Shown here: one piece after another, positions 38,622 to 56,577 of the stretch
Numbering within the stretch: the first letter of the stretch is position 1
Layout: every line of letters starts with the position of its first letter
NCBI RefSeq assembly: GCF_013170705.1
Contig: NZ_CP033334.1
Location: 2,519,501 to 2,583,500, forward strand
Direction of reading: 5' to 3'
Origin: Mesorhizobium loti
GTDB taxonomy: Bacteria; Pseudomonadota; Alphaproteobacteria; Rhizobiales; Rhizobiaceae
DNA length: 64,000 nucleotides
Program-made: the position numbers and the translations under genes
The notes under the pieces: model-generated
What the model saw: the letters and a program-made list of their open reading frames with translations, nothing else
Database searches by the model: none
Told to the model about the DNA's origin: nothing

Positions 38622-40847
38622 CTAATTGTTGCTGGCAACGGGTGCCACCAGCGACGTGATGCGGCGGATGGCGACACGCCGGTTCTCACGGTTGGGCGCC
38701 GAGGTGTTTACCTTCAGATACTCCTCGCCATAGCCCTGCGTCGTCAGGTTCTCCGGCGGGATGCCGAAGGCATTGGTCAGCGCTTCGGCAACCGCTTCGG
38801 CGCGGCGGTCGGACAGAGCAAGGTTTGCCTCCGGCGTGCCGACGGCGTCGGTGTGGCCTTCGATCAGGAAGGTCTCGGCCGGGTTCTTCTTCAACAGCTT
38901 CTCCATGGCGTTGGCGACGCCCTCGAGCTTCTGCACCTCGGTGTCGGAGATCGAGGACGAGCCGAATTCGAAGTTCAGCGTGTCGAGGTCGACGCGGCGC
39001 GCAATGTCGCGCACACGGGCCGAACGCTTGACCTCGTCGATCGAATAGAGGCGCTGGACCCTTTCCACCGGCGGCTGTTCGAGGAAGGTGTAGTAGTCGT
39101 CAGGGCTTTGGACGTCCTCGGAATCGAGGATGTAGTCACGGCGAGGGATGGTCAGCCGCATCGGCGGCAGGTCATCGCCGGGATCGCGCCAGTCGCCCTC
39201 ATCCTGGTAGTCCCGCTCGTCGACATAGCTCAGCACATATTCGCGCCCGTCAGGCGTGATGCGTGAGCGCTGGATGACATCGCCGTAGCGGTTACGGATG
39301 GTGACGATCCGGATGCCGTTGTCGCGCTCGACCGTCTCGCGTGTACGGCCCTGCGGCAGGTCCTCGTAGTAGACGTCCCTGGCGCCGCGGTTCATGCGCC
39401 GACCTTCATTGCTCTGGACGATCGTCTGGCCGCCGAGCTGGATGATGACGCGGTCGCCGATCTCCTTGAGCACGTCAACGCCCTGGGGACGGCGGCGGTC
39501 GCGGATGTTCTCATCGGGCGCACGGTCGCGGCGCTTGCCCTTCTCTTCCGTCACCGGGACAAACTTTTCGGGCTTGATCTCCTGCTGGGCTGCCTTGTCG
39601 TCGGTTGGAGGCGGACCCTGGTCGACGGGAGCGACCGCGGGCTTCCGCCCCTGATCGCCGCCTTGCTGGGCGTTCTGGCCGCCATTCTGCTGCTCGCCAC
39701 TCTGCTGACCGTTCTTGTCGCCCTGCCTGCGGCCGCCGCCCTTGCGTTCGGCGTCCTTCTGGCTGTCGAGGAGGGGGGCAGCGTTCTTGTCGGCGGGCGC
39801 TTCGCCCTGGACGGGATTTTCGCCCTGGACAGGCGCGGTCTTGCCGCCATTGGCCGGCTGTTCGCCGGTGGCTGGCTGCGCGCCCGTGACCGGCTGCTCG
39901 CCATTCGCGGGCTGTTCGCCCGTCGGCTTCTTGCCGTGCTTCTTCGTCTTGTCCTGGGGCTGCTCACCCTGGGTCGCCGGCTGTTCGCCGGCCGGAGCCG
40001 TTTCAGCCTTGGGCGTCGTCGCTTCGCCGGCGGGAGCTTGCTTCGGCGTCGGAGCGGCTTCCGGCGTCACCGCCGGGGCGGCGGGAGCCTCTTTCTGCTG
40101 GTCCGGCTTGTGTTTCCTGCCGGGCTTGGTCTGCTGGTTGTCGTTGGCGGGTTCTGTCTGCCCAGCGGGCGCCTGTTCGGCCGGCGCCTGCTCGGTCTGT
40201 TGCTGCTGGTCGCGCTTCTTCTTGCGCGGCTGCTGTTCTTGGGCGGCAGGGGCTGTCTGTTCGGCCGGCGCCTGCTCGGTCTGTTGCTGCTGGTCGCGCT
40301 TCTTCTTGCGCGGCTGCTGCTCTTGGGCGGCAGGGGCTGTCTGTTCGGCGGGAGCCTGCTCGGTCTGCTGCTGATCGCGCTTCTTCCTGCGCGGCTGCTG
40401 TTCTTCAGCGGCAGGGGCTGTCTGTTCGGCGGGAGCCTGTTCGGTCTGCTGCTGCTGGTCGCGCTTCTTCCTGCGCGGCTGCTGTTCCTCGGCGGCTGGA
40501 GCGGCCTGCTCGGCTGGCGCCTGCTCGGTCTGTTGCTGCTGATCGCGCTTCTTCCTGCGCGGCTGCTGTTCCTCGGTGGCTGGAGCGGCCTGCTCGGCTG
40601 CCGGTGCCGCCTTCTCGGCGGGGGCCTGCTCGGTCTGCTGCTGGTCGCGCTTTTTCTTGCGCCGCTGCTCCTGGTCGCTCTGTTGTCCCTCGTCGGCGGG
40701 TGCGTCCTGGGCCAGAATCAGCGGCGTTCCACCGCGTTGCATGGTGTCGAACGCGGCATTTCCCTGAAGCGGGAACGCGCCCAACGGCGCGGATGCCATC
40801 AGCAGGCCAAGTGCGGTACCTGCCAGAATCCGTGGTTGGCGTTTCAT
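38622..40847 (-). CDS. OmpA-family outer-membrane/peptidoglycan-binding protein with Gln-Pro-Ala-rich repeats
   Basis: 741 aa. Signal peptide MKRQPRILAGTALGLLMASA; ATG 40847 is preceded by AAGGAGAG. Residues about 62-215 are six imperfect 26-27-residue repeats (RKKRDQQQQTEQAPAEQ, then TAPAAEEQQP). A disordered Pro/Gly/Gln region follows to about residue 430, then a basic stretch. The C-terminal OmpA domain has FEFGSSSISDTEVQKL, IEGHTDAVGTPEAN and LSDRRAEAVAEAL, the peptidoglycan-binding signature. A periplasm-spanning anchor or adhesin-like role is likely. Confidence 0.88.
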   Translation of the reverse strand: MKRQPRILAGTALGLLMASAPLGAFPLQGNAAFDTMQRGGTPLILAQDAPADEGQQSDQEQRRKKKRDQQQTEQAPAEKAAPAAEQAAPATEEQQPRRKKRDQQQQTEQAPAEQAAPAAEEQQPRRKKRDQQQQTEQAPAEQTAPAAEEQQPRRKKRDQQQTEQAPAEQTAPAAQEQQPRKKKRDQQQQTEQAPAEQTAPAAQEQQPRKKKRDQQQQTEQAPAEQAPAGQTEPANDNQQTKPGRKHKPDQQKEAPAAPAVTPEAAPTPKQAPAGEATTPKAETAPAGEQPATQGEQPQDKTKKHGKKPTGEQPANGEQPVTGAQPATGEQPANGGKTAPVQGENPVQGEAPADKNAAPLLDSQKDAERKGGGRRQGDKNGQQSGEQQNGGQNAQQGGDQGRKPAVAPVDQGPPPTDDKAAQQEIKPEKFVPVTEEKGKRRDRAPDENIRDRRRPQGVDVLKEIGDRVIIQLGGQTIVQSNEGRRMNRGARDVYYEDLPQGRTRETVERDNGIRIVTIRNRYGDVIQRSRITPDGREYVLSYVDERDYQDEGDWRDPGDDLPPMRLTIPRRDYILDSEDVQSPDDYYTFLEQPPVERVQRLYSIDEVKRSARVRDIARRVDLDTLNFEFGSSSISDTEVQKLEGVANAMEKLLKKNPAETFLIEGHTDAVGTPEANLALSDRRAEAVAEALTNAFGIPPENLTTQGYGEEYLKVNTSAPNRENRRVAIRRITSLVAPVASNN
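40200..40664 (-). repeat. In-frame tandem coding repeat, about 78-81 bp unit, six copies
   Basis: Within the OmpA-family gene, an approximately 80-bp unit encoding RKKRDQQQQTEQAPAEQ and a variable TAPAAEEQQP linker recurs six times. Adjacent copies are nearly identical in DNA, with length changes in multiples of three (DQQQ versus DQQQQ), as expected from recent slippage or unequal crossing over. Confidence 0.85.
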
Positions 40848-41045
40848 CGAAAGCTCTCCTTGTGGGGTCCCATCCTTGCCGAAACCGATCTTGGACCGAT
40901 TGGTTCCAGTTTGGTGGGGATAGATGCCGTACAGGGCGATTGGCCGGCCTTTTGAAGGCAACTTCATGTCATTAGGCCAGCCTAAGGTCCGATTCCAGTC
41001 CCTACCGCGCTTGACCTCGACGGCGGGCGGGGCCACATCCGCGAG

Positions 41046-41492
41046 ATGGAAACGCCATTCTGGAAAACAAAGACGCTGGAAGCGATGAGCCCGGCCGAGT
41101 GGGAATCGCTGTGCGACGGCTGCGGCAAATGCTGCCTGTCGAAGCTCGAGGACGAGGATACGGGCGAGATCTACTGGACAAGTGTCGGCTGCCGGCTGTT
41201 CGATGCGCAGAGCTGCCGCTGCGCCGACTATGCCAACCGGCTGGCGCGCGTTCCCGATTGCGTCGGCCTGACGCCGCAGAATGTACGCACCATCAGCTGG
41301 CTGCCCAGCACCTGCGCCTATCGGCTGGTGGCCGAGGGCCGCGACCTCTATTGGTGGCACCGGCTGGTGTCGGGCAGTGCCGAGACCGTGCACGAGGCCG
41401 GTATCTCGATGCGCGGCCGGGTCAAGGCGAGCGAGACCGAACTGGCCGAGCTCGAAGATTATTTTGACTATATACTCGACGACGAGCCTTGA
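41046..41492 (+). CDS. YcgN/UPF0260 family cysteine-cluster protein
   Basis: 148 aa. Conserved cysteines: CDGCGKCC near residues 23-30, then [15 protein letters not shown] and PDC, the UPF0260 pattern proposed to bind an Fe-S or zinc centre. [17 protein letters not shown] is also typical. Function unproven. It stands alone, convergent with no partner, about 200 bp from the OmpA-family start on the other strand. Confidence 0.85.
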
Positions 41493-41681
41493 GGCTGGTG
41501 TCCGCCAGGCGCCAGGAATCTGGGCGGGGTATTGGGGGTTCGAAGATCGGCGGAGGTTTCCTTACCGCCACATGAACCGCAGATGAACGGCGAGTTCGTA
41601 AATAGTTCAGACAGGCCAGTGCATTGTCCCGCCATCGGTTTCACGAGGACGGGCGCAAGCCCGCAACAAGGAGAGAGAACC

Positions 41682-42038
41682 ATGTACACCAAGATCAAGA
41701 CGGCAGCCCTTTCGGCGCTGGTCGGCCTCGGCACGCTGGCCGCCATTCCCGCCCATGCCGACAGCCTCTATCTCGGCTTCGGCAACAACCAGGATCCGCG
41801 TTTCGGCGTCTATGCCGGTGATGACGGCTATCGCCACCGCCGCGACGAGCGCCGCGACGACTGGCGCCGTGGCTGCTCGCCCGACCGCGCCCTCGACAAG
41901 GCCGAGCGCATGGGGCTGCGCCGTGCCCGCATCGTCGACGCCAACCGCCGCGTGGTGAAGGTGATGGGCCGCCAGTATGGCGATCGCGTCGTCATCGTCT
42001 TCGCCAATGAGCGCGGCTGCCCGATCATCAACCGCTGA
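41682..42038 (+). CDS. Small secreted protein of unknown function
   Basis: 118 aa. AAGGAGAGAG precedes the ATG; signal peptide MYTKIKTAALSALVGLGTLA with cleavage after AHA near residue 26. The mature part is Arg/Asp-rich (YRHRRDERRDDWRRGC) with two cysteines (RGCSP and ERGCPI) that may pair, and a C-terminal PepSY/antifreeze-like beta region (VVKVMGRQYGDRVVIVFAN). Similar short proteins are common in rhizobia; the role is unknown. Confidence 0.75.
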   Translation: MYTKIKTAALSALVGLGTLAAIPAHADSLYLGFGNNQDPRFGVYAGDDGYRHRRDERRDDWRRGCSPDRALDKAERMGLRRARIVDANRRVVKVMGRQYGDRVVIVFANERGCPIINR

Positions 42039-42085
42039 GGCCTCTTGATGGCAGAGCCCCTGTCCGATCGGACGGGCGCGGCTCG

Positions 42086-42121
42086 AAAAAACCCCGCGGG
42101 AGCGATCCCGCGGGGTTTTTT
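42086..42121. terminator. Bidirectional rho-independent terminator
   Basis: 10-bp stem CCCCGCGGGA / TCCCGCGGGG, loop GCGA, with six A on the left and T on the right. Serves the small secreted protein gene (plus) and the convergent SIMPL gene (minus). Confidence 0.95.
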
Positions 42122-42196
42122 CCTTGCATCGTATCGGCTGCGGATCATCCGTCGCCGGCACTGCCGGCGACGGATGACCGTTGCTTCAGCCGGCTG

Positions 42197-42907
42197 TTAT
42201 TTCAGCTCGAAGGTGACGGTCACCTGGACATTGTAGGCGTTTTCGCCGGCCTGGGTCGGCACCGCCGACCGGGCCGCGTCGAATGCCTTGGCGTTGATGG
42301 CCATCGGCGCGGGAGCGATGTTCTGGTCGGAGATTTCCAGCACCCGGCCAATGCTGACGCCGGCGGCCTCGGCCAGCGTCTTGGCCTTGGCGATGGCGTT
42401 GGCAACCGCCTTCTTGCGGGCTTCGGTGATGGTGGCATCAGGATTGTCATTGGTGAAGGAGATGCCGCCACCCTGGTTGACACCGAGAGACACCGCCTTG
42501 TCGAGGATCTCGCCCGTCTTGTCGATGTCGCGCACCCGTACCGCCAGCGTGTTGGTGACCTGGTAGGCGACGAGCTCTGCCTCCTGGCTGCCGTCGGGCT
42601 TGTTGGTGAAGTTGTAGCGCGGATTGATCTGGATGCCGGCGGTCTGCAGGTCGCGATCCTTGATGCCGGCCGCCTTCATCGCCGCGATAACCGCGGCCAT
42701 GGCGTCGTTGTTGGCATCGAGCGCCGCGCGCGCCGTCTTGGCCTCGCGCATGACGCTGAGCGAGAGCAACGCCAGGTCGGGAGGCGTGGTCGCTTCGCCT
42801 TCGCCCGACACGATGATGCGGGCGGGCGTCGGCGAATCGGCGGCTCCAGCCATCGCCGGAAAAGCGATTGCAGCGGCGAGCGCGAGGGGCAAAAGATGTC
42901 TGGTCAT
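42197..42907 (-). CDS. SIMPL-domain (DUF541) periplasmic protein
   Basis: 236 aa. Signal peptide MTRHLLPLALAAAIAFPAMA, cleavage near AGA-AD. The SIMPL domain follows: IIVSGEGEATTPPDLALLSL, then LQTAGIQINPRY and YQVTNTLAVRVRDIDKTG, with ARKKAVANAIAKAKTLAEAA. Bacterial members (such as YggE) are linked to oxidative stress tolerance. Monocistronic. Confidence 0.88.
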   Translation of the reverse strand: MTRHLLPLALAAAIAFPAMAGAADSPTPARIIVSGEGEATTPPDLALLSLSVMREAKTARAALDANNDAMAAVIAAMKAAGIKDRDLQTAGIQINPRYNFTNKPDGSQEAELVAYQVTNTLAVRVRDIDKTGEILDKAVSLGVNQGGGISFTNDNPDATITEARKKAVANAIAKAKTLAEAAGVSIGRVLEISDQNIAPAPMAINAKAFDAARSAVPTQAGENAYNVQVTVTFELK

Positions 42908-43041
42908 GAAAATCTCCGTGGTATGCGATCAGGTCGCAAGCGTCGCCTAGAGCGCGATTATGGGTTGATTTGGGCGATCAGCGAAAGCCCGTCGCGAAAG
43001 CCTTGTGCTGCGATGCGAAAAACATTAATCCAGCCGGCGTG

Positions 43042-43117
43042 GGGCCTGTAGCTCAATGGTTAGAGCCGGCGGCTCATAACCGCTTGGTTGGGGGTTCGAG
43101 TCCCTCCGGGCCCACCA
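43042..43117 (+). tRNA. tRNA-Ile(CAU), 76 nt, CCA encoded
   Basis: Acceptor arms GGGCCTG and CGGGCCC pair over seven bases with a discriminator A and encoded CCA. Anticodon loop CTCATAA gives CAU. The D arm AGCTCAATGGTTAGAGC and the anticodon arm GGCGGCTCATAACCGC are close to E. coli tRNA-Ile2, whose CAU is modified to lysidine-AU, rather than to either tRNA-Met. The 3' end borders a genomic island with a tyrosine integrase, so it is the likely attachment gene. Confidence 0.88.
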
Positions 43118-43223
43118 TGACCATTGATTTTATTTCGGAAAAGTGCCCTCGGCCCAAAACGTTTTGGGTCCATTATGGGCCAAAACAAGGACCGTGGTCC
43201 CGGTTTGTTCCGACTCGGTGTGA

Positions 43224-44414
43224 TTATCTGACGATGCGGAGGTTTGCCCGTCGCTTCATGGCGTCGCGTTTGGCCTCGCGCTCGTTGATCGCGCGAGCAA
43301 TATCAACCGCGATCCGCTTCTTGTTGGCCTCACGCACGTAGTCATCCGTCACCGTCATGGAGGAATGCCCCATGGCGTCCATGATGGCCCGGGCCTGGAT
43401 GTTGCATTCAGCGAGGTAGGTGCCGAAGGTACGGCGCAGGCCGTGAAGCGTATAGCCGTCAGGAATATCGGCCTGTCGTGCCCAATGCTGCATCATGCCT
43501 GTCAGGCTCTTTTCTGAAAACGGGTTGCCATAGCCATTCTTCAAGACGGTTCCACCCTTCGAGCGGTCAAGCGGGTCTAGCGCAGCCGCCAGTTTGTCCA
43601 CCACCGGGATAAACATCTCCCGTCCGCCATGACGGTTTCGGTTCTTCTTCTGTCGGAAGGCGAACGCCTCGATCAATGCCAAGGAACCGTCGAACAGTTC
43701 GATCTCCTCGGTCACGAGATCATCCCATTCAAGGTCAGCGATGTCGCCTCGTCGGTTGCCGAGCCAGAAACCAAGCGCGTAGCACGTCCGAGCCGGCGTT
43801 CCGATCGGATGCCGCTCCTCGTACTTTTCTCGGATCGCAATTGGCCAAGCCGGGTTCTTGGTCGATTTGGGCACGCGTACGCGGATTGACAGTGAAGGAT
43901 CATCCTGCGGCTTTATCCATTTCTCGACATCGGTCGCGACCCATACAAGCTTCTTGATGGCAACCAGCATATGTTTGGCGACTGTGCGGTTGCTACTGAA
44001 GATGCTTTCGATGATGGCGCGAAGCCGATCCGCGTCGAGATGTTGCACCGGAGTATCGCGCCAAGTGAGTGGGTAATTTGGATCGACCCGCAGATTAAGA
44101 AAACGCTCAATCAGTCGCGCATTCTTCCGCTGCGTCGCTTCATCAAAATCGAGCCATTCCATTGTCGTTTCAAGCCGGCGCGCGGCATGCCCAAAAGTTT
44201 TTGGCAATGCCCGACCGGGCAAATCGATGATAGCTGCCTTCTTGTGTTGGCCCTGCGCGGCCTTCTCGTAAGCGGCCTCGAACTCGGGATCGCCGGGCTT
44301 ACCCGGAAGGCGGATTTCGGGCACGCCTCTTGCGCGGTAGCGATAGATTAGCTTGCCGTTCTTGAGGCGCGAAGATACCCCAGGGTAACTGGGGTCCTTA
44401 AATGGACGAGCCAT
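43224..44414 (-). CDS. Tyrosine recombinase/phage-type integrase (tRNA-Ile side)
   Basis: About 396 aa. Catalytic residues: Arg in GNRRGDIADL, His-x-x-Arg in LHGLRRTFGTYLAE, His in MGHSSM and the nucleophile Tyr in VTDDYVREA. Start ATG 44414, preceded by AGGAGC; the TTG three bases earlier is unlikely. Its 3' end points to tRNA-Ile(CAU), 107 bp away, so the attachment site is probably in that tRNA. An AlpA-like gene lies 85 bp upstream. Confidence 0.92.
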   Translation of the reverse strand: MARPFKDPSYPGVSSRLKNGKLIYRYRARGVPEIRLPGKPGDPEFEAAYEKAAQGQHKKAAIIDLPGRALPKTFGHAARRLETTMEWLDFDEATQRKNARLIERFLNLRVDPNYPLTWRDTPVQHLDADRLRAIIESIFSSNRTVAKHMLVAIKKLVWVATDVEKWIKPQDDPSLSIRVRVPKSTKNPAWPIAIREKYEERHPIGTPARTCYALGFWLGNRRGDIADLEWDDLVTEEIELFDGSLALIEAFAFRQKKNRNRHGGREMFIPVVDKLAAALDPLDRSKGGTVLKNGYGNPFSEKSLTGMMQHWARQADIPDGYTLHGLRRTFGTYLAECNIQARAIMDAMGHSSMTVTDDYVREANKKRIAVDIARAINEREAKRDAMKRRANLRIVR

Positions 44415-44499
44415 CAAATGCTCCTTTCAGGACCCTTTCAGATCTGCCCGTACCGAACGGGTTTTGCTTTCGATGGAACATACGCAATGAGCGTAGTTG

Positions 44500-44751
44500 C
44501 TATCGTTTTTCTACGTCCCGCCTGCTTCGTTCCAACAACTCTTGAAGGCCGCTATCTTTGTCCGGCAACGAGGTGAAAGCAATATCCAGGGCTACACGAT
44601 CCCAGACAGCGCGGCTGTTGATGCGCTTGGGCTTCGGCATCCGCCCATCGGCAACCATCTCGTCAAAAAGCGTTGATCCGACACCGATGTAGCGAGCCGC
44701 TTCCTCACGAGATAACCCTCGTGGGGCATACGAGATTGCGTCACTCTTCAT
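44500..44751 (-). CDS. AlpA-like excisionase/HTH regulator
   Basis: 83 aa with a MerR-like helix-turn-helix: RGLSREEAARYIGVGSTLFD, then EMVADGRMPKPKRI and AVWDRVALD, the AlpA/Xis pattern. Directly upstream of the integrase in the same direction, so it probably controls excision. Start ATG 44751 gives a compact domain; the frame runs upstream to 45162 without conserved features. Confidence 0.8.
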   Translation of the reverse strand: MKSDAISYAPRGLSREEAARYIGVGSTLFDEMVADGRMPKPKRINSRAVWDRVALDIAFTSLPDKDSGLQELLERSRRDVEKR

Positions 44752-45297
44752 GGACGCTGCCTCGGTCCTGATATTCCGGGCATGTGGGTATCGAAGCACA
44801 AAGCCACATCCTAGTTGCCGTTTCGTAGCGAGGAGATCGTGTGTGGCTAAAATAGGAAGAGCCTCGTTAAGCGGAAGCGGCCTGACTAGTTCGTTCGGCG
44901 TAAACCGGCAGCAACGTGTGAGCGGGGGCATTCCGGCAGGAGAGCAATCCGTGAAGCAAGTGGGCGGACGGCATTTCGCTGAGCTGGCGATCAGTGAGCC
45001 ATTACTCAGACGTCGCGTCAGCGGACTTTCGTACGCCTGCCGGCGCCCGAAAATCTTCACGGGAGCGGACTGACAGGTCTTGGGATGACGCGAGAAGCTG
45101 TTGTTCCGCCTTGACGAAAGCCGACGCTCGGAGTGCCATTCCGACGAGGCTACTGCTGCCATTCTTGCGGGGCTCCCGCGGATTCTTCGATGTGGGATGA
45201 AATCCGATTCGAACAGAATGCTCCGAGTGGCAATACTGGAAGGAATCGCGCAGATTGCCTAACCATTTGGCCATTTGCTCGAGCCGGCGGAGTGACG
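44752..45297. other. 546-base gap between the AlpA-like and Argonaute genes
   Basis: Open frames exist on both strands (45,002-45,274 minus; 44,994-45,200 plus), but I recognise no protein family and the codon patterns are not convincing. It must hold the divergent promoters, of which I can identify none with confidence. GGAG at 45,289-45,292 is the Argonaute ribosome site. Possibly contains remnants of older insertions. Confidence 0.4.
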
Positions 45298-48200
45298 ATG
45301 AATCACCAGGATCATACCTTCGGCCGCATCGGCGGTCGTGATGAAAGCGTCCTCCCCCTCGACGCGTTCGTCCGTTCGATCTCCATCAACACCGAAGTGG
45401 GCCACATGCTGCTGCTCGGCGCCGGCGCGTCGATATCATCGCGAATACCGTCCGCGTCGACCTGTATCTGGCAATGGAAGCGATCGATCTTCCTGTCAAA
45501 CCATCCTGGGATGGAGCGCAATTTCGACGAGCTGTCGCTCGGCATGGTCCAGGAACGCATCCAGGATTGGCTCGATACGCAGCCGGGCTTCCCGCGTGCT
45601 GGCGATGCAGGGGAGTACGGGTTCTATATCGACCGCTGCTATCCGCGCATCGAGGATCGCCGCTCGTTCTTCCAGCGGCACATCCAGGGCGCGAAACTGA
45701 GCAGCGGCTACCGGATCGCTGCGCGCCTAGCCAAGAACAACCTGTTCCGGCTGGCCTGGACCACCAACTTCGACGGCCTCATTGCACGAGCGCTCGCGGA
45801 GACGTCCGTCACCCCGGTGGAGATCGGGCTCGATTCGACCAACAGGATCGTCCGCACCAACCGCGCCGGCGAACTGAGCTGCGTCGCGCTGCATGGCGAC
45901 TACCGCTACGACACGCTTCGCAACACCGATGCCGAAGTGCAGCGCCTCGACAGAGAATTGCGGCAGGCACTGATCGACCAGTCCATCTCCTCCCCAATCA
46001 TCGTGCTCGGCTATAGCGGCCGAGACAACTCGATCATGGAAGCTCTGACCGACTGCTACTCGCGTTCCGGTACAGGCGTGCTTTACTGGTGCGGCTTCGG
46101 TGACGGGCCGCCGCCTGAAGCTGTTGCCAGCCTCATCGCCGTTGCGCGCAAGGCCGGACGTACCGCGTATTATGTCCCGGGTGCCGCCTTCGATGACGTC
46201 ATGCGTCGCCTGGCCCTGGCCACCTTGGGTGGTGCGGACCGCGAGGATGTGCTCGGCATCATCGCCAAATCGGGCACGGAACAGCCGGCCTCGATGCCCT
46301 TCACTGTGCCGGCGGGCGCGATCGGCGGTATAGTCAAGAGCACGGCCTTCAAGCTCCGCTGCCCGGTCGAAGCGTACTCCTTCAAACCTGCCTCGATGCC
46401 CGAGCAGGGCGTATGGCGATGGGTGCGCGAGGCGATCGGCGAACGCCGCGACCTGATGGCCGTGCCCTACAAGGGAAGGGTGTTGGCGCTTGGCACCCTG
46501 ACCAGTATCCATGAGGTGTTCGCGGATCCTATGGCCGAAGCGCCTATTCGCGTCCCGATCGACATCAGCGAGCTACGCCATGAGGACGGCGGGGTCACGC
46601 ATCTGCTTGTGCGTTCCCTCGCCCTTGCGATCGCCGGCGCCCGGAGCCTGCCATCGGAGGGACCTTTGCTGTGGGATCCGGAAAAGCCGCAACGCAGGCA
46701 GGTCGATGGCCGCAGCTACAAGGTCCAGGACGCGGTCCTGCTGTTCATCCGTCGCGCCGGCCGGGACACGTTCCTGGTCTTGAAGCCTACGGTGAAGGTC
46801 CTTGCTGCCGATGGGTCGCCGGCCCCGAAGGAGGACGAGAAGGCGATCAAGCTCGGTATTCTCGGCTATCAGCACAACGACAAGTTCGACGCGGCCGTCG
46901 AACGCTGGCGCCGCCAGTTGTTTGGCGAGGGTACTCAGTTCAGCTGCCCGCCGAGCGAGGATAGCGGCTTCGTCTTCACGATCGACCGCGCGCCCGTGTC
47001 GGCGGCGATCGTGGCAGCGCCGGGAGAGGCCGCAATACCCGAGAAGGCCGCGGCGAAATCGGTGCAGAAGGGTTTCAGGATCAGGGAGCCCAACCTGCTA
47101 TTCGCCAGCAAGGGCAACACAGGGATGGTTAATGACCCGCACCCGGTGCGGGGCCTGGTGTCGAACCGCCCGTTCGATTTCAGCCTCACGCGTTCCGGCA
47201 TGGCGCACGACATCAAGCTCGGGGTCATCTGCCCACAGCCCGAGGGCTCTGCCACGGCCGCGCGGCTCACCATGCTGGAGCAAGCGGCAAGCCCCAGTGA
47301 AACGGAAAAGGATTACCTCCTGGACTTTCCGGGGTTCGCGCAGGCATTCGGCTTACCCCTCGTCATCCCCCGACCGCAGGACCTGTCATGGCGCGCGCCC
47401 GATGAGCCGTCCCCGGACCTGACGAAGGAGCGTGGTACCCGTTTCGCGGCGCGTGCTGTGATACAGGCCATCGATGAACTACGCAGCGCACAGCGCGTGA
47501 ACGTCATCCTGATCGTCACGCCGCTTCGCTGGGCGAATTGGCGCTCCTTCGAGACCGACAACGAACGCTTCGACCTGCATGATTTCGTCAAGGCCTATTG
47601 CGCCCGCAAAGGCATCGCGACGCAATTCCTCGACGAGGATACCCTGACCGATCCGCAGACCTGCCGCATCCGGTGGTGGCTGTCGCTAGCCCTGTACGCG
47701 AAGAGCTTCCGCACCCCGTTCGTCCTGCAGGCGGCAGGCGCCGATACCGCCTATGTCGGCCTCGGTACGAGCATCGACCGTCATGGCCCACACGGCCGCA
47801 AAGTCGTGCTCGGCTGCAGCCACATCTTCAACCAGCAGGGCCAAGGCCTGCAGTACCGTCTGAGCAAGGTCGAGAACCCGAGCTTCGACCGCCGCCAGCG
47901 CAACGCGTTCCTGTCCCGCGACGATGCGCGGCGCGTCGGCGAATCCATTCGCCAGCTGTTCTTCGAGGCTCGTAGCGCCCTGCCTCGCCGCATCATCATC
48001 CATAAGCGCTTCGAATTCCGGCGGGACGAGCGCGAAGGCTTGCTTGAGGGTCTCGCCGGTATAGCTGAGGTCGATATGGTTGAGATCACCGTCGACGATG
48101 CATTCCGCTACGTGAATTCCAAGATGTATTCGGGCAAGCTTGAGGTCGACAAGTTCCCGGTTGCCCGAGGGACCGTCATTCCAATAGGCGACCAGGAAGC

Positions 48201-48486
48201 GCTGCTTTGGGTGCATGGCAGCGCCGCGGCGATACGCAACAACTGGCGCTACTACCAAGGCAAGCGGCGCATCCCCGCGCCGCTGCGGATCCGCCGGCAC
48301 GCAGGTACGACCGACCTGCAGACGCTGGCGACCGAGATCCTCGGCCTGTCAAAGATGAACTGGAACAGCTTCGATCTTTACACCCAGGTACCGGCCACCC
48401 TCGAGACGTCCGGTCAGATCGCGCGCATCGGGCGTTTGATGGAAAATTTTGGCGAGGCGAATTATGACTACCGCCTGTTGATGTAG
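45298..48486 (+). CDS. Fused SIR2-APAZ-PIWI short prokaryotic Argonaute
   Basis: 1062 aa. Residues about 35-290 form a SIR2 NADase domain: LLLGAGASIS (41-45 core), WTTNFDG (155-159), catalytic His in ALHGD (199) and LGYSGRDNS (238-243), all intact. About 300-600 is consistent with an APAZ domain. The C-terminal third is MID-PIWI: AYVGLGTSID, IIIHKRFEFRRDEREGLLEG, ALLWVHGSA, GKRRIPAPLRIRRHAG and LGLSKMNWNSFD. The first PIWI catalytic Asp reads Gly (VGLGTS), so it should bind guides but not slice. By analogy with SPARSA, invader recognition would trigger NAD+ depletion and abortive infection. Unlike two-gene SPARSA, all parts are in one chain. Start ATG 45298 follows GGAG. An AbiV-like gene begins 5 bp after the stop. 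Confidence 0.85.
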   Translation: MNHQDHTFGRIGGRDESVLPLDAFVRSISINTEVGHMLLLGAGASISSRIPSASTCIWQWKRSIFLSNHPGMERNFDELSLGMVQERIQDWLDTQPGFPRAGDAGEYGFYIDRCYPRIEDRRSFFQRHIQGAKLSSGYRIAARLAKNNLFRLAWTTNFDGLIARALAETSVTPVEIGLDSTNRIVRTNRAGELSCVALHGDYRYDTLRNTDAEVQRLDRELRQALIDQSISSPIIVLGYSGRDNSIMEALTDCYSRSGTGVLYWCGFGDGPPPEAVASLIAVARKAGRTAYYVPGAAFDDVMRRLALATLGGADREDVLGIIAKSGTEQPASMPFTVPAGAIGGIVKSTAFKLRCPVEAYSFKPASMPEQGVWRWVREAIGERRDLMAVPYKGRVLALGTLTSIHEVFADPMAEAPIRVPIDISELRHEDGGVTHLLVRSLALAIAGARSLPSEGPLLWDPEKPQRRQVDGRSYKVQDAVLLFIRRAGRDTFLVLKPTVKVLAADGSPAPKEDEKAIKLGILGYQHNDKFDAAVERWRRQLFGEGTQFSCPPSEDSGFVFTIDRAPVSAAIVAAPGEAAIPEKAAAKSVQKGFRIREPNLLFASKGNTGMVNDPHPVRGLVSNRPFDFSLTRSGMAHDIKLGVICPQPEGSATAARLTMLEQAASPSETEKDYLLDFPGFAQAFGLPLVIPRPQDLSWRAPDEPSPDLTKERGTRFAARAVIQAIDELRSAQRVNVILIVTPLRWANWRSFETDNERFDLHDFVKAYCARKGIATQFLDEDTLTDPQTCRIRWWLSLALYAKSFRTPFVLQAAGADTAYVGLGTSIDRHGPHGRKVVLGCSHIFNQQGQGLQYRLSKVENPSFDRRQRNAFLSRDDARRVGESIRQLFFEARSALPRRIIIHKRFEFRRDEREGLLEGLAGIAEVDMVEITVDDAFRYVNSKMYSGKLEVDKFPVARGTVIPIGDQEALLWVHGSAAAIRNNWRYYQGKRRIPAPLRIRRHAGTTDLQTLATEILGLSKMNWNSFDLYTQVPATLETSGQIARIGRLMENFGEANYDYRLLM

Positions 48487-48491
48487 CGGCG

Positions 48492-49424
48492 ATGGCGACC
48501 GAGACAGTACAAATGGAACCGGCCGCGCCCGACACGGATGCCATGGCGGCGCTCAAAGATCTGGTCGAAGAGATCGTTGCGGGCCGTCTGTCCGTGATGG
48601 AGGTCATGCGCTCCGCGCCGGAGGGCGACTATTTCGCGTTCGTGCAGCAGGCACGCTTATCCCGGATGCTGATTGCGGACCGTCGCGTTCTTGAACGCCT
48701 CATGGTGGAGATGCGCGGTAAGTTGATCCACGACCCGGACAACGGCGACATCTACAAGGAACTCGCGCGCAAGGATGGCGCAAGACGCTTCCCCAGATTG
48801 CTCGCCGAGCGAGCCGATGCTTTCAACACGCAGGCTTCGTTGCTCACAGCGAATACCTTTCCCGAGCGGCTTGAGCAGTACGGGGTTCTCATCGCTTACG
48901 TCGAAAAGCTCTGGACGGATGCCTGCGAGCTCTTCCATCGCGGCAACTTCCCGATGGCGGCGTTCATGTCGATCCTCGTCATCGAGGAAGTTGGCAAGCT
49001 CACGCGGCTGGCAGAGGAGCTGATCTATCTCGACGCGCCGTTGCCGATCGCCCGCCACCCAGTCGTCGAAAAGAGTCATCGCAAGAAGCATTTCATCAGC
49101 GTCATGTCCGGCGCGCTGGTCAACGCCCGACTGGAGCGCATTCTGGGGAAGAACACCGTCCGGCGCGTGCTTCACGAGGCCGAGAGCGACGAGCTGGAGA
49201 AGACACGGCAACAGTGCCTCTATGTCGACATGGCGGAGGGGCGCGCCGTCACGCCGACCGAGAGGATCGGCGAGCCTCGTGCGCGCGAGCTCACCATCCT
49301 GGCAGGCGAGCTGATGGCCGAGATCCTAGGGCACTTCCCGTGGGAATTCGAGCGGATGATGTTGAACATCGTCGCCTATGAACGCCAGCTCGGCCTTCCC
49401 GAGAACAAGATCGAGCGTCGCTAG
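48492..49424 (+). CDS. AbiV-like HEPN-fold protein partnered with the Argonaute
   Basis: 310 aa, largely helical. Residues 130-260 match the AbiV pattern: YVEKLWTDACELFHRGNFPM, then SILVIEEVGKLTRLAEEL (the conserved EE-GK), KSHRKKHFISVMSGALVNAR and a Cys-containing LEKTRQQCLYVD. AbiV is a lactococcal abortive-infection protein now placed in the HEPN superfamily, whose members are often RNases or antitoxins. The N-terminal 130 residues are not recognised. It starts 5 bp after the Argonaute stop with no clear ribosome site, which implies translational coupling and a shared function. The precise partnership is inferred. Confidence 0.65.
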   Translation: MATETVQMEPAAPDTDAMAALKDLVEEIVAGRLSVMEVMRSAPEGDYFAFVQQARLSRMLIADRRVLERLMVEMRGKLIHDPDNGDIYKELARKDGARRFPRLLAERADAFNTQASLLTANTFPERLEQYGVLIAYVEKLWTDACELFHRGNFPMAAFMSILVIEEVGKLTRLAEELIYLDAPLPIARHPVVEKSHRKKHFISVMSGALVNARLERILGKNTVRRVLHEAESDELEKTRQQCLYVDMAEGRAVTPTERIGEPRARELTILAGELMAEILGHFPWEFERMMLNIVAYERQLGLPENKIERR

Positions 49425-49439
49425 GCGAGGGCCGGAGGA

Positions 49440-50200
49440 CGGGCCGTCATCAGGCGGCAAGCCAGATACTCCTCGCAGCTGGCGCAGTTAGCGATTACTT
49501 GCCTTTGAGATGCTGCCGAGCTTCTCTTTACCCCGCTCGAGTTTTGCTTCGGCACGAGCCCGATCCAAGCCGAGAGGCATCGCCCCCGACTTGAATGCGT
49601 GCGGATCGGCGACGGTCGCAACGAACGCACTCGCCAGCAGCGGGCCAACGCTCGGAATCTCCATCAACCTGCGACCCAGTTCGGTCTCTCGCGCACTCGC
49701 ACGGACCCGACGATCGTTTTCGAGGATCTGTTCCTTCACGACACGAAGCTGTGCTTCAAGCATCCTCGGGCAAAGCCGTGCGTCGGCCGGTATCCTGGCA
49801 TCGTTCTCGTCGTTGATGACCACGAGAAGTTGCTCAATTCCATTACGCCCGATCGGCGCCAGGACCCCGAACTCGGGTAGGTGCGCCCGCAGTGCGTTCG
49901 ATTCGGTGCTCTGGCGGTCGAGCATCAATCAAAACCTGGTGCAGATCATCACACTCTGTTGCTCAGGCGACTTCACCGGCACGAAGCGCATCGTCGGCGT
50001 GTCACGGCCTCGCAGATCGCCTCTGCAGCATGATTCTTCTGCCGCTTCAGATGCGGCTTAACATACTGTGCCGGCACCAGCCGCACATCGTGGCCACGCG
50101 CGATTAGCTCGCGAGCCCAATGATGCACGAACTGCACGCATCGATCCCGACAAGCGCCGCCACATGCCGCTCGCGCCGCTAACTCCGCCAAATGAGTCGT
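49440..50200 (-). pseudogene. Decayed IS110-family transposase
   Basis: Minus-strand fragments in different frames align in order with an IS110/IS1111 transposase. N-terminal part at about 49,990-50,190: HHWARELIARGHDVRLVPAQ and YVKPHLKRQKNHAAEAICEA. Middle part 49,540-49,928: NALRAHLPEFGVL, then MEIPSVGPLLASAFVATVAD. C-terminal part near 49,540-49,590: LSAWIGLVPKQNSSG. At least two frameshifts separate them and the ends are missing. It lies between the AbiV-like gene and the Hachiman operon. Confidence 0.8.
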
Positions 50201-50225
50201 GACCGCCCGCCATCGAACTCAGACG

Positions 50226-53200
50226 TCATTGCGGTGAGATGAAGATGCGCGAGACAGTCACGCGTCTGGGACGAACTATAAGCTCAAAATCGTCGCGGTT
50301 TGAGGTGGAGGAAAGACCTTCTTCTCTTCCCTTCGTTCTCGCAAGTATGAAGCCCGACGGATCCAGCCAATTGATTGCGTCATCGGAAGGTACCGGAATG
50401 ACCGAATAGCGCCTATTCCGACCATCGGTTCCAACCAACGTAGCTTCGTCTGCTTCCTCGTCAAAAAGATCGCTCTCATCGCGTCGAATACTACTTTGCC
50501 ATTCCAGGTATAGCTGAGGATCAATCTTGTTCTCGGAATCGGCACCGTAGCCTGACGCTGCCAACCATTGCTCAAAGTCAGCCCGTCTTACGGCGGCGGC
50601 GTCACGGGTTTTCGCTAAACCCTGTGCCAGTGCAAATGCGACGAATGGATCTAACGTACCCCAGCGAAGCAACTCACGGACCCAAAAGGCAAACCAGGGC
50701 AGGCCCGTGGTTGCTCGCCAATCTTCGAGCGAGGGGACAGCGGCGGGATCATCGGCACCGCTCGACCATGCTTGGGCGACTACGGCACCGATAACGGTTC
50801 CGAGACGGAATTCCAGATTGTCGGCGAGAAAACGCTGCCAGCTGCGAAGAGCGGCCGGAATGGGTGCCGGCGCGTCGGGACCTTGTAACCACCAGGCGAG
50901 GACGCCAGTCCAGTCGGCCAGCAACCGCCTGCAGGCGTTCCGCGGTGGCAGCGTCGCCGTATTCGGTAGCGTCCGCCAGTAGCTGCTTAATTTCAACGGC
51001 GATCGCCTCAAAACGGCGGCCGACATAAGGCGTAAAACCGTATTGATATAGTCGCTCGCGTTCATCGGAATCCGGATAGATGGTCTCGATAATTGCCCGG
51101 CCTCGACGAATGAAAGCATCCTCCATCCATGCTTCCTGGACTGCGGCAACGCTGGTGAAAGTCCGTTGCCATAGGGCGATCAAATAGGATTCGGCCTGTG
51201 GTCCATCCATGTCGGCCACGTCATCATGGCCCAGTTCCTCCAGTGCCGTCAGGAGAAAACCGTCGAGCTCATCGACACTGTCTGCTAACCGGGCCCGTGA
51301 CGTGGTGGCTGCGACGCCAGCGTTAACACTTATGGCATTTGGGGTTATCGCGTCGAGCCAATCCAGAAATTCGTCTGCGCCAATGCCAATGGCCGCCGCC
51401 CGCTCGCGGATTGCAGTCAGCAACAGGGCCAGAGGGCTTTGCACAGCCGCTGCTTCTCGCTCGTCTCGCAGGACGTTGACCAAGAGAGTATTATAATCCG
51501 CCTGCAATTCCCGCCGTTGCCGAGTCTGCAACCGCTGCTCGGATGCCGTCTTGCTGGAATTGGCCTGTGGGATTGCAATGAGGGTCATACCTTCCATCCC
51601 GCTAGAGGCGCCGGGTCTCCCTGCCCTTCCGGCCAGGTTGCGGAATTCCGCCGTTGGAAGTGGTGCCACGACAGGTTGGTTTGTTAAGGGATCGAATGAC
51701 CGCCGCTTCAGCGAGGTCAGCAAGATAATGTCGAATGGGAGGTTGACCCCTTCCGTCAGCGTAGCCGTCGCGACCGTGATCGGACAGATGCGCTTATCGA
51801 TGAGATCGACCATCAACCGCCTAAGGCGCTGAGGCATCTGCCCGTGGCTCGTTGCGATGCCTTTGTCGAGCAGGGCGACCTCGTAGGATTCGGCGCCGCA
51901 GTAATCGGCGGCCGCGGCACGCGCCTCCTGGAAAAGTTCACCGGCTCGGCCTTCGGGTGGCGTGAAAGCGGGAATATTTGCCCAGTCGGGAAGTTGAAAC
52001 GCCTCAACGTACCAGCGCATGGTCAGCTCCGGCTCTTGCATAACTGAGATCAGGATGCGGCGATCCGTCTCCAATAAATGCAGCGCCGTCCACAAGACGC
52101 TCGTTTGGTTGAAGCGGTAAAGGCTTTGTCGCATAAGCCTCGGCAGTACGGGCATGACTGGTGTGCGCAAAGGCAGATAGACGGGCGCATCGCGTCCGCG
52201 GACGGACAGAGGTTTTCCGTTCATCACATCAAGCAGTATCCGATCCGACGCATTCGGGTTCGTCTCCAGAACCCCGATCAACTGGCGCGTGCTGCGATAG
52301 CGTGTCCCAATTGCTGTGGCGTCGTTCCTTTTTTCGATCCATTTGGCCACTGGAAGTGCTGCGCCGCCTGCGACAGCGGTAAGGGCGATGCGAACTATGT
52401 GGGGAGCCCGCACCAATAGCCGGGAAACGAAGCTTTCGAGCCGAATGGCACGATTGCTATGTTCTGCCAGGTCGGCCTTGGTTCGGGTGTTGTTTTCGGC
52501 AACGACTTGATGGGCTTCGTCGATGATCAACAGCCGCAGCCGCGCGACCAAAAGAGGTCCGACAAATCGCATCAGGGCCTCCGCTTTCTCAACGGTCGCA
52601 ACAAGGACGGTAGGCGTTTCAGCTTCCAGCCAATAGTCGGTAATTCCCCAGTCGGTGCCCCCATAGAGGCCTGTGATGATCATGTCATCGCCAAGTTCGC
52701 TCTTGAGCTTCGCTTCCACTTCTCCCGCCAATGCCCGTGATGGCACGACGTAGAGGGCGAGCGGGGAGGAGGCGAGACCCGTTGGGATGAGGAGTTCTTT
52801 TACAAGAGCAAGGTTGGCGACAAGGGTCTTCCCGGAGCCTGTGGGGGTACACAGCGCGAACGATGAATCGGTCAAGAGCCGGGAGAGGCCGGCGCGCTGC
52901 GACGACCACAAGATACCTCGGCGACGGCTATATTGCCCGCGGGCGAAGCGCGCGAGGCGCGGCGCCCTTGCGGGGTTAAGGGCGGCCAGCTCATTCACCG
53001 GTAGGTAAATTGAGGCCTCGGTGTAGCTGTGGGCCACCGCCCGCGCGAGCGTTATCAGTAGCGACGTGTCCTCGCTGAACGTCCGCGTCGCCATTTTTTC
53101 CAATGCGTCGAGTTTCTGGATTGCGCGGGCGAGGCGATCGGCCTGTCCTCGTCGCAAGGCGTTGGCAACGAGGCCAAGACTTCGGACAAGTTCAACGGTG

Positions 53201-53766
53201 AAGTACCACGCGATCCGGCCTTCTCCATCATCCTCGAGCAGCCGCCGAGGGGCCTCGCGGTCGGTCAGTTCCGAGTTTTGCTGCCAGAATGAGGCGGCGA
53301 TAGCCAGAACCTCGTCGAAGTCGGCACGCAGGAAGCTGGCGTAGAGCCGGGACCCCTCATCCTCACCTGCTTTTTGTGCGAGCAAGCCATTCGCCATCGC
53401 CGGAAGGCCGCCCAACTGATACGCAGCGGCGGCAAAAAGTTCAATCGGCGCCACACTTCGGGTTCGGTCATTCGATCGGGTGAGCCATTCGAGAAGCTCG
53501 CCGGCCCTCCGATAGCATTCTATTGCACCAGCCGAGGCGCTGCCTTCTATCTCTCGATAGATCTCAGCGACATGCAGCAGCCGGCGGGCATCGGTGAGCT
53601 CTGAGCCGGATTCCGGATCGCCCCATTGGATCACCGGTACCTGCCAAGCCGTCTGGAGGCAACGCACAAAGGAACGTGCCTGCCTAGAGGAAAGCACGTT
53701 TTCCACGCCGATCTCGAGCCTCACCTCGTTGGCTATCCCGAGGCGTTCTTCATCTCGTTCCGCCAC
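50226..53766 (-). pseudogene. hamB: HamB-like DEAD/DEAH helicase (Hachiman), split by a +1 frameshift
   Basis: Large Ski2-like helicase. Frame from GTG 53766: Walker A CTPTGSGKT (residues 306-314), DEAH box LLIIDEAHQ (412-420), ALTAVAGG (motif III), and FRNLAGRAGRPG (motif VI, 708-719). Near 50,925-50,931 the frame turns to an Arg-rich tail and stops at 50,749, while coherent sequence (RLLADWTGVLAWWLQGPD onward) continues in another frame to 50,226. Skipping one G in CAGGCGG restores a protein of about 1,180 aa. Either a recent mutation, a programmed shift or a sequencing error. It starts 3 bp after the hamA stop. Confidence 0.75.
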
Positions 53767-53769
53767 TGA

Positions 53770-54726
53770 CTAGTCCTCTGCCCAGAGAAGGTCGTAGATT
53801 TGGTCGATCAGCGCGGCCCCGCGGTTTAAGATCAGTTCGACAACTTGAAGGTCGTTGGGCGACGTGTACTCTGCAGGCGTTTCCTCCCATCCGATCAAGG
53901 CCGACCGAGGCTCCCTGGTCGCGGCGCCATCACCGGCGATCATTATCAAGTTTGTCCGCGGGATGGGCACCGGGTTGCGCAGTACCAATGCCCTGTCGAG
54001 AGAAACAATTGCTGCTGCATAACCATCCCGGTCGCGTTCCGAGAGAAGGCGCTGAAGCTGGCGCACACCATGGGGAACGGGAAGGTCGCGGTTGATTTCA
54101 AACCAAACGCCACCCTTGCGGAACCTTTCTCCAGTTGATCTTCGTACTTTCCAGTCGCCCAACATCAAGTTGTCGACGGTGCTCCTATTAAGCGTTTCGC
54201 GCCATTTCGCTTCCCCCACAATCAGCCGAACAACCGCGCCGTCGTGGTCGAGAGATATGCCGAGAAAATCGGAGCCTAAGCGTCCAAAGACAGCTCTGAC
54301 GCGAGCCGCATCGCGAGCAAGATCGAACAGATATTTTTCTACATCAGCATGATAGCGAAACAGAAAAATCGGGATCGACCATTTGTGTTTGCCCACAAAC
54401 TCATATTGCTCGGTGACCAGCCCTGCGATTACCTCTCCGAAAAGGCCCCGCTTGGCGGTCATGGGAAGGCATCCGGGATACAGCAGTGCCGCGTCATCGA
54501 CGTCGTCCTGTTCTGCGTCTGGATGGAGGTCGATCCCTATCTGTTCAGCAAAGTGCTCGCGGGCGTCGCGGTGGGCTGACTCAAAATATGGAACAAGAGC
54601 GGAAGCGAGGTTCCGATTTCTGTCCTCTTTTTCTTCAAGCAGAAGATGACCATAGGTCCCTTCGACTGTTGAATAAGGTTCTAGCCATCGATCCATCGCC
54701 CTGGATGGCGGTCCGCAGTCGTGCAT
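53770..54726 (-). CDS. hamA: HamA-like DUF1837 nuclease (Hachiman)
   Basis: 318 aa. DUF1837 features: GLFGEVIAGLVTEQYEFVG near residue 93 with the first Glu, IPIFLFRYHADVEKYLFDLA, GSDFLGISLDHDG and LIVGEAKWRE near 170, giving an Asp/Glu...GEAK active-site set. HamA is the DNase effector that HamB releases on damaged or phage DNA. First gene of the leftward hamAB pair. Start 54726 is tentative; ATG 54696 (MDRWLEPYS) is also possible. Confidence 0.75.
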   Translation of the reverse strand: MHDCGPPSRAMDRWLEPYSTVEGTYGHLLLEEKEDRNRNLASALVPYFESAHRDAREHFAEQIGIDLHPDAEQDDVDDAALLYPGCLPMTAKRGLFGEVIAGLVTEQYEFVGKHKWSIPIFLFRYHADVEKYLFDLARDAARVRAVFGRLGSDFLGISLDHDGAVVRLIVGEAKWRETLNRSTVDNLMLGDWKVRRSTGERFRKGGVWFEINRDLPVPHGVRQLQRLLSERDRDGYAAAIVSLDRALVLRNPVPIPRTNLIMIAGDGAATREPRSALIGWEETPAEYTSPNDLQVVELILNRGAALIDQIYDLLWAED

Positions 54727-55086
54727 TGTTGTTTGCGCCCCAACGCAGTTATTTCTGCCGCGTTTACAATACTCTGACGCTTAAAAGAAGATGTGCGCCA
54801 GACCAAATTTACGGGTGCCACAAGCGTTGGTAGGGATCATGTGACCGCGATGACAGATTCATCGCCAGACCGTGGCGGGCGGCGCAGCTACTTGGCATGA
54901 CGGAGCGAATGGCCGCGCAAGTCTCGACCAAGGCATGGAACCTTGGGCAGTGTTAATGTGTCCCGAAAAGCGGGAGGATCACCCTCTCGCAGAATTTAAT
55001 TCAGTACAGTGGCGTAGCGCTTCAAATCACGATTCGTCTTGGTCATCGGGTTTGCCAGACCATAAGTCGCCCAGTTTTTGGGATCT
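54727..55086. other. 360-base gap between hamA and the second integrase
   Basis: Upstream region of hamA on the minus strand, somewhat AT-rich at 54,730-54,830. No ORF with family features, no tRNA remnant and no clear att repeat found. Probably holds the hamA promoter, whose elements I cannot place with confidence. Confidence 0.5.
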
Positions 55087-56289: not shown

Positions 56290-56501
56290 TTTCGGGAGCT
56301 CCATTTGGCTGCATCGATACCATCAGGATCTCCAATACCACCGAAAATACCAGCCCTCCGCCTCGTTGGACCAACTACGCCGAAATTCCACAAAACACGA
56401 CCAACCGCGCCTTGCGTGCAAAAATCACCAAGGATTTCAGACATTTGCCGAGACAAAAGCGTAGATGCTTCGGCGAAAGAGACAGTCGGGAGAAGGGGGG
56501 A

Positions 56502-56577
<76 letters not shown>

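What the first reader, a model, noticed from the sequence alone, without database searches (positions are those of the whole stretch)
45298..49424. Argonaute operon with an AbiV-like HEPN partner: candidate new defence system
The AbiV-like gene starts 5 bp after the fused Argonaute and lacks a clear ribosome site, so it is translationally coupled. It combines an NAD+-depleting, guide-loaded sensor with a HEPN-type protein that could be an RNase, a second effector, a guide processor or an immunity factor. I know of no described short-pAgo system with this partner.
Basis: inference. Interest (0 to 1): 0.85.

Follow-up and report, generated by a model that had tools for sequence, protein, structure and literature searches.

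The report
Argonaute plus AbiV two-gene defence cassette
Two known kinds of bacterial antiviral gene, an NAD-destroying Argonaute and an AbiV-type (probably RNA-cutting) protein, sit in one small transferable cassette; the AbiV-type gene also occurs alone or behind other antiviral genes, so it looks like an interchangeable add-on rather than a fixed Argonaute part.

Summary
45298-48486 (+) encodes a single-chain SIR2-APAZ-MID-PIWI short Argonaute (fused SPARSA type) with the SIR2 dyad intact. 48492-49424 (+), 5 bp on and without a ribosome site, encodes an AbiV-family HEPN protein with an N-terminal extension.

The pair is not unique: 2 of 146 genomes of the genus (this one included) carry it. 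They share 45060-49426 at 94.3% DNA identity, ending 2 bp past the AbiV stop, in unrelated flanks; both genes are under purifying selection with similar dS. It is a co-transferred two-gene cassette.

It is not a general Argonaute-AbiV partnership. Four of six full-length fused Agos read lack it, and the two carriers are close kin. In 8 AbiV-like loci with readable upstream DNA, 2 follow Ago, 3 follow TrlF, TIR or PIN-like genes, and 3 have no such partner.

Best reading: a fused SPARSA NADase module and an autonomous AbiV-type RNase share one transcript as layered abortive-infection defences. A portable second effector serving several sensors is not excluded. I found no description of the combination in the papers searched; each half is known.

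The parts
45060..49426 (+). Shared two-gene cassette: 238 bp of upstream DNA, the Ago gene and the AbiV-like gene
   Evidence: one blastn match, 94.3% over 4387 columns, to G439 (L016:6458-10843); nothing else of window 40001-56000 aligns to the 19-kb locus at E 1e-5
45298..48486 (+). Fused SIR2-APAZ-MID-PIWI short Argonaute, 1062 aa
   Evidence: PDLC02384 E=0; PF13289; GsSPARSA by sequence and fold
45343..46227 (+). SIR2 (NADase-type) domain, about residues 16-310
45766..45768 (+). N157, equivalent of N142 of GsSir2
   Evidence: alignment; need for N142 in NADase from PMC10781750 passages; invariant in A2, 37 rows
45892..45894 (+). H199, equivalent of H186 of GsSir2
46324..47016 (+). APAZ part, about residues 343-573
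   Evidence: GsSir2-APAZ chains align to residue 572/573
47059..48483 (+). MID-PIWI part, about residues 588-1062
48487..48491 (+). 5-bp spacer, no Shine-Dalgarno-like site before the second start
48492..49424 (+). AbiV-like HEPN protein, 310 aa
48492..48866 (+). N-terminal helical extension (about residues 1-125; from residue 102 on the model aligns with lactococcal AbiV), presumed specificity or partner part
   Evidence: model mean pLDDT 90, residues 1-9 under 50; a search with residues 10-130 (proteins of 0.55-1.75 times the length only) gave 18 rows: 17 with PF18728 and one 177-aa row without a Pfam hit whose second half reads like a shifted frame
48873..49316 (+). HEPN_AbiV domain (residues 128-275)
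   Evidence: E165, E166, K169, H196, K199, R213, R216 and R239 identical in 59 of 59 rows
49077..49079 (+). H196, invariant histidine outside the classical Rx4-6H motif
   Evidence: 59 of 59 rows; an alternative AbiV histidine is described in PMC3710099 (passages)

Best explanation
It is a transferable cassette of two separate abortive-infection modules read as one transcript. (1) A single-chain SPARSA Argonaute: a guide RNA pairs with invader DNA in MID-PIWI-APAZ, and the SIR2 domain then destroys NAD+ and stops the cell. (2) An AbiV-type HEPN protein that works on its own: its N-terminal part or HEPN dimer senses a phage product, and the HEPN domain then cleaves RNA and blocks translation. 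The AbiV-like gene is the replaceable second gene; it joined this Ago probably once, in a Mesorhizobium-type lineage, and is translated by coupling to it. Shown: domain content, conserved key residues, the shared block in unrelated flanks, purifying selection on both genes, AbiV-like genes without Ago, fused Agos without AbiV. Inferred: common transcript, coupling, NADase, RNase, sensing and independence.
For: Fused Agos without AbiV-like: L032, L033, L034, L046, i.e. 4 of 6. AbiV-like without Ago: 6 of 8 intact loci with readable upstream DNA, 3 of them with no plausible partner. The two Ago-linked copies form one clade (100/96) and the three other partners lie on separate branches. N157/H199 align with GsSir2 N142/H186. 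The best fold match is titled 'HEPN family member AbiV, an RNase in a two-component antiphage system' (9bj6, title only). Lactococcal AbiV is described as binding phage protein SaV and probably inhibiting translation generally (PMC3231927 passage). Shared block, and dN/dS 0.141 and 0.372 with dS 0.144 and 0.129.
Against: The 5-bp spacing, the missing ribosome site and the block edge 2 bp past the AbiV stop would also fit an obligate pair. In 5 of the 8 loci the same-strand upstream gene is within 28 bp or overlaps and is a defence-type gene (one, PIN-like, only weakly identified), which a purely independent gene need not show. The 9bj6 title says 'two-component'; I could not read that work to learn what the second component is.
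Confidence: 0.6

Rival explanations
1. True two-part system: the AbiV-like protein binds the fused Ago, or is triggered by it or by NAD+ loss, and acts as a second, RNA-cutting effector.
For: Coupled-translation geometry; both genes lie in one shared block with similar dS; long-B pAgos have downstream genes made of a helical part plus HEPN, TIR, PD-(D/E)XK or TM domains (PMC10954474 passages).
Against: 4 of 6 fused Agos lack it; for 5 Ago clusters of 73-85% identity on long contigs, at most one could share its longest contig with a listed AbiV cluster of 60% identity or more (indirect and weak); this Ago already carries its own SIR2 effector.
Confidence: 0.2
2. Portable accessory effector: this AbiV subfamily is a common second gene that serves several different upstream sensor/effector genes (SIR2-Ago, TIR, TrlF, PIN), with its N-terminal extension as the docking or sensing part.
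For: Same-strand upstream defence-type gene within 28 bp in 5 of 8 readable loci: Ago at 5 bp twice, TrlF (NF045780 E 1.5e-193) at 28 bp, CAP12-type TIR (PF10137 E 2.6e-18) overlapping at TAATG, PIN-like (PF01850 E 2.2e-4, 22.3 bits against a cut-off of 23.6) at 24 bp, the last two counted to the first possible AbiV start; the extension was found only with this HEPN (within its limits).
Against: Only 8 loci, two of them near-copies; 3 have no such partner; close same-strand genes are common in bacteria and no baseline was computed; defence islands put such genes side by side anyway.
Confidence: 0.12
3. Incidental neighbours: two defence genes that happen to share a transcript, with no benefit from the pairing.
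For: Defence-island setting with integrases and Hachiman-like genes; apparently a single pairing event.
Against: The block recurs in a second genome with unrelated flanks, and both genes are kept under purifying selection.
Confidence: 0.08

Closest known systems
SPARSA (SIR2-APAZ plus short pAgo; Geobacter sulfurreducens, 8in8, 8jkz, 8y80)
   Same: SIR2-APAZ and MID-PIWI sequence and fold; Asn-His dyad
   Different: Single chain here, two chains in Geobacter; an AbiV-like gene follows here
Fused SIR2-APAZ short pAgos (group Ia of Ryazansky et al. 2018, PMC6299218, passages seen)
   Same: Same one-chain architecture, described in 2018
   Different: The words HEPN and AbiV do not occur in the main text of that paper; its tables were not seen
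AbiV of Lactococcus lactis (9bj5-9bj7)
   Same: HEPN_AbiV fold; EEVGK and the H-x-x-K-H residues align
   Different: About 95-125 extra N-terminal residues here; lactococcal AbiV has 201 aa (PMC3231927 passage)
Long-B pAgos with a downstream helical-HEPN/TIR/PD-(D/E)XK/TM gene (PMC10954474, passages seen)
   Same: A pAgo gene followed directly by a HEPN-type gene
   Different: There the downstream gene is the proposed effector of an inactive long-B pAgo; here SIR2 is fused to the Ago. Whether their HEPN is AbiV-type was not checked

Membership tests
SPARSA / fused SIR2-APAZ short pAgo | SIR2 domain with Asn-His dyad | tested here: met
   N157/H199 align with N142/H186
SPARSA / fused SIR2-APAZ short pAgo | APAZ plus MID-PIWI | tested here: met
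SPARSA / fused SIR2-APAZ short pAgo | PIWI without slicer tetrad | not tested
   No residue mapping to an active Ago was made
SPARSA / fused SIR2-APAZ short pAgo | Guide-triggered NAD+ depletion | not testable with these tools
   needs biochemistry
AbiV | HEPN_AbiV domain above curated cut-off | tested here: met
   PF18728 75.3 bits (cut-off 27.1); TIGR04498 76.7 (cut-off 27); PF18728 in 59 of 59 rows of A1
AbiV | AbiV fold | tested here: met
AbiV | No classical Rx4-6H in the HEPN domain, alternative conserved His | tested here: met
   The only Rx4-6H match is at 75-80, outside the domain and not conserved; H196 in 59 of 59; feature from PMC3710099 passages
AbiV | RNase or translation block on phage infection | not testable with these tools
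   needs experiment
Long-B pAgo with helical-HEPN partner | pAgo chain without an effector domain of its own | tested here: not met
   SIR2 is fused on; best PADLOC, sequence and fold matches are SIR2-APAZ short pAgo systems

The most novel reading that the evidence does not exclude
The AbiV subfamily with the N-terminal extension is a general-purpose RNase second stage that recombines behind unrelated sensors (single-chain SIR2-Ago, TIR, TrlF, PIN), so that one alarm gives NAD+ loss or other first-stage damage plus RNA cleavage. The Ago cassette would then be a guide-directed member of that set.
Probability: 0.12. Interest if true: 0.75.

Novelty: new variant of a known kind. Interest (0 to 1): 0.42.

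Why it matters
Each half is known, but I found no description of the pairing in the papers searched, and the same AbiV-like family stands behind other defence genes. If the add-on reading holds, it shows how bacteria build layered antiviral cassettes by swapping one effector gene between sensors. The Ago-linked, TrlF-linked, TIR-linked and partnerless copies found here make this directly testable.

Tried and rejected
Searches for the AbiV-like protein in viral contigs (two scans), PLSDB plasmids and phage records gave no relative. Surveys of order (397 genomes), family (394), the genus of G035 (213) and the family of G394 (28) gave one new locus, G394: the other hits were G000 itself, G394 again, and two whose places match L005 and L007. 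I compared contig lengths in the protein listings to link Ago and AbiV on one contig. No value is shared between the 120 AbiV and 120 Ago rows listed, but the listings give only the longest contig of each cluster and the known pair in G439 is also missed, so the method is weak (one search used only 15 Ago and 15 AbiV clusters).

Not supported by anything seen: a guide-processing or immunity role. AbiV-like fused to other effectors: one search found none, within its length limits. Phage origin: no viral relative found. Viral fold library: no match at E 0.001 or better. No att-like direct repeat was reported in 42900-63000. The sigma-70 scan of 44900-50300 found no site; the host's promoters may differ. 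No baseline for close same-strand neighbours was computed. The N-terminal part was not folded alone, so nothing is claimed about its fold being known or new. The absence of AbiV at other Agos rests on tblastn with the window's AbiV protein (E 1e-3); a very distant AbiV could be missed.

Rows dropped: of the 8 loci, L009 (24-residue match) and L008 (broken copy) were not counted. G431's AbiV remnant (L019) and Ago remnant (L025) were described, not counted. G479 (= L002, contig end, about 450 bp upstream readable) and L003 (291 bp upstream) were left out of the 8 readable loci. L035 (SIR2-APAZ part only) was left out of the 6 fused Agos. A1 holds the window protein plus 58 of the 120 listed of 141 homologues; A2 the window protein plus 36 of the 120 listed of 1204. 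On re-check I changed the PIN-AbiV gap from 25 to 24 bp and the novel-case probability from 0.15 to 0.12, so that it agrees with the matching rival.

Full report

Is the pair a unit? In 146 genomes of the genus, an AbiV-like gene occurs in 5 (one a remnant with stops) and a full-length fused Ago in 2, G000 and G439. Both of these have the AbiV-like gene 5 bp behind the Ago. The two genomes share one block, window 45060-49426 at 94.3% identity, and nothing else of window 40001-56000 aligns to the 19-kb G439 locus. The right edge lies 2 bp after the AbiV stop. Ago dN/dS is 0.141 (dS 0.144) and AbiV-like 0.372 (dS 0.129), so both genes have been kept and have diverged to a similar degree. The AbiV-like start has no ribosome site, so translational coupling is plausible but inferred.

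Is it a general Argonaute partnership? No. Of six full-length fused Agos read, four show no AbiV-like gene: L032, L033 and L034 (viral-contig collection) and L046 (G1578) (tblastn; genes listed). Two-gene SPARSA-like loci on plasmids (L039-L041) and in genomes (L047-L049) also gave no AbiV hit, and no plasmid record matched the AbiV-like protein. G431 keeps a C-terminal Ago remnant (94% over 117 aa) with no AbiV-like gene in the 1.5 kb read beyond it.

Where else is the AbiV-like gene? Ten intact loci were read, eight with enough upstream DNA. Two follow Ago. One follows a TrlF-family ATPase (G461, 28 bp; NF045780 E 1.5e-193). One overlaps the stop of a CAP12-type TIR gene (L004; PF10137 E 2.6e-18). 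One follows a PIN-like gene by 24 bp (L005; E 2.2e-4, under the Pfam cut-off). Three have no such partner: L006 has a divergent gene with a weak phosphoribosyltransferase match; L007 (same strand, 156 bp) and G394 (divergent) have genes that read like integrases by eye, not searched. On a tree of 27 rows the two Ago-linked copies are one clade (100/96) and the three other partners fall on separate branches, 3 changes forced; with so few labelled rows the label counts themselves are not significant. The sample is small and no baseline for close neighbours was computed.

How it probably works. The Ago half should act as SPARSA does: guide RNA and target DNA binding switches on SIR2, NAD+ is lost and growth stops (reported for GsSPARSA, PMC10781750 passages; inferred here). 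The AbiV half should act as lactococcal AbiV does, where the protein binds phage protein SaV and translation is probably blocked (PMC3231927 passage). The N-terminal extension is the likeliest place for a different trigger (inference). I give 0.6 to two independent modules in one cassette, 0.2 to a true joint system, 0.12 to a portable accessory effector and 0.08 to an incidental pairing.

Novelty. Fused SIR2-APAZ pAgos were described in 2018 (PMC6299218, passages; no HEPN or AbiV in its main text). Long-B pAgos with a downstream helical-HEPN gene are described (PMC10954474, passages). I found no paper on AbiV next to a short pAgo in the ten searches made; the library lacks most subscription papers and bioRxiv. 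I file it as a new variant of a known kind.

Noticed in passing
window 50749-54726 (-): Hachiman-like pair beside the cassette: HamB-type helicase (PDLC00174 E 1.8e-48) and a very weak HamA match (E 6.5e-4); a further 307-aa ORF (50226-51149) had no PADLOC or Pfam hit.
   Followed up: partly
window 43042-44417 and 55087-56577: tRNA-Met with an integrase on one side and an integrase with tRNA-Phe on the other bracket the Ago/AbiV/Hachiman-like stretch, as in a defence island; no att-like repeat reported.
   Followed up: partly
window 49488-49928 (-) and L016:11506-11979 (-): IS110-family transposase pieces lie within 0.7 kb behind the AbiV-like gene in both carriers, although that DNA does not align between them.
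   Followed up: no
L017:7158-12777 (G461): The AbiV-like gene sits between a TrlF-family ATPase and a PtuA-like ATPase (PDLC00283 E 1e-73).
   Followed up: partly
L018 (G479): A TrlF-family gene (897 aa, NF045780 E 3.1e-150) lies about 4 kb downstream of another AbiV-like gene, on the same strand.
   Followed up: no
window 38622-41393 (-): 923-aa ORF with tandem repeats rich in RRKKRDQQQTEQAPAEQ followed by what reads like an OmpA-type C-terminus (by eye).
   Followed up: no
G431 (L019, L025): Remnants of an AbiV-like gene and of this Ago lie far apart in one genome, suggesting past loss.
   Followed up: partly
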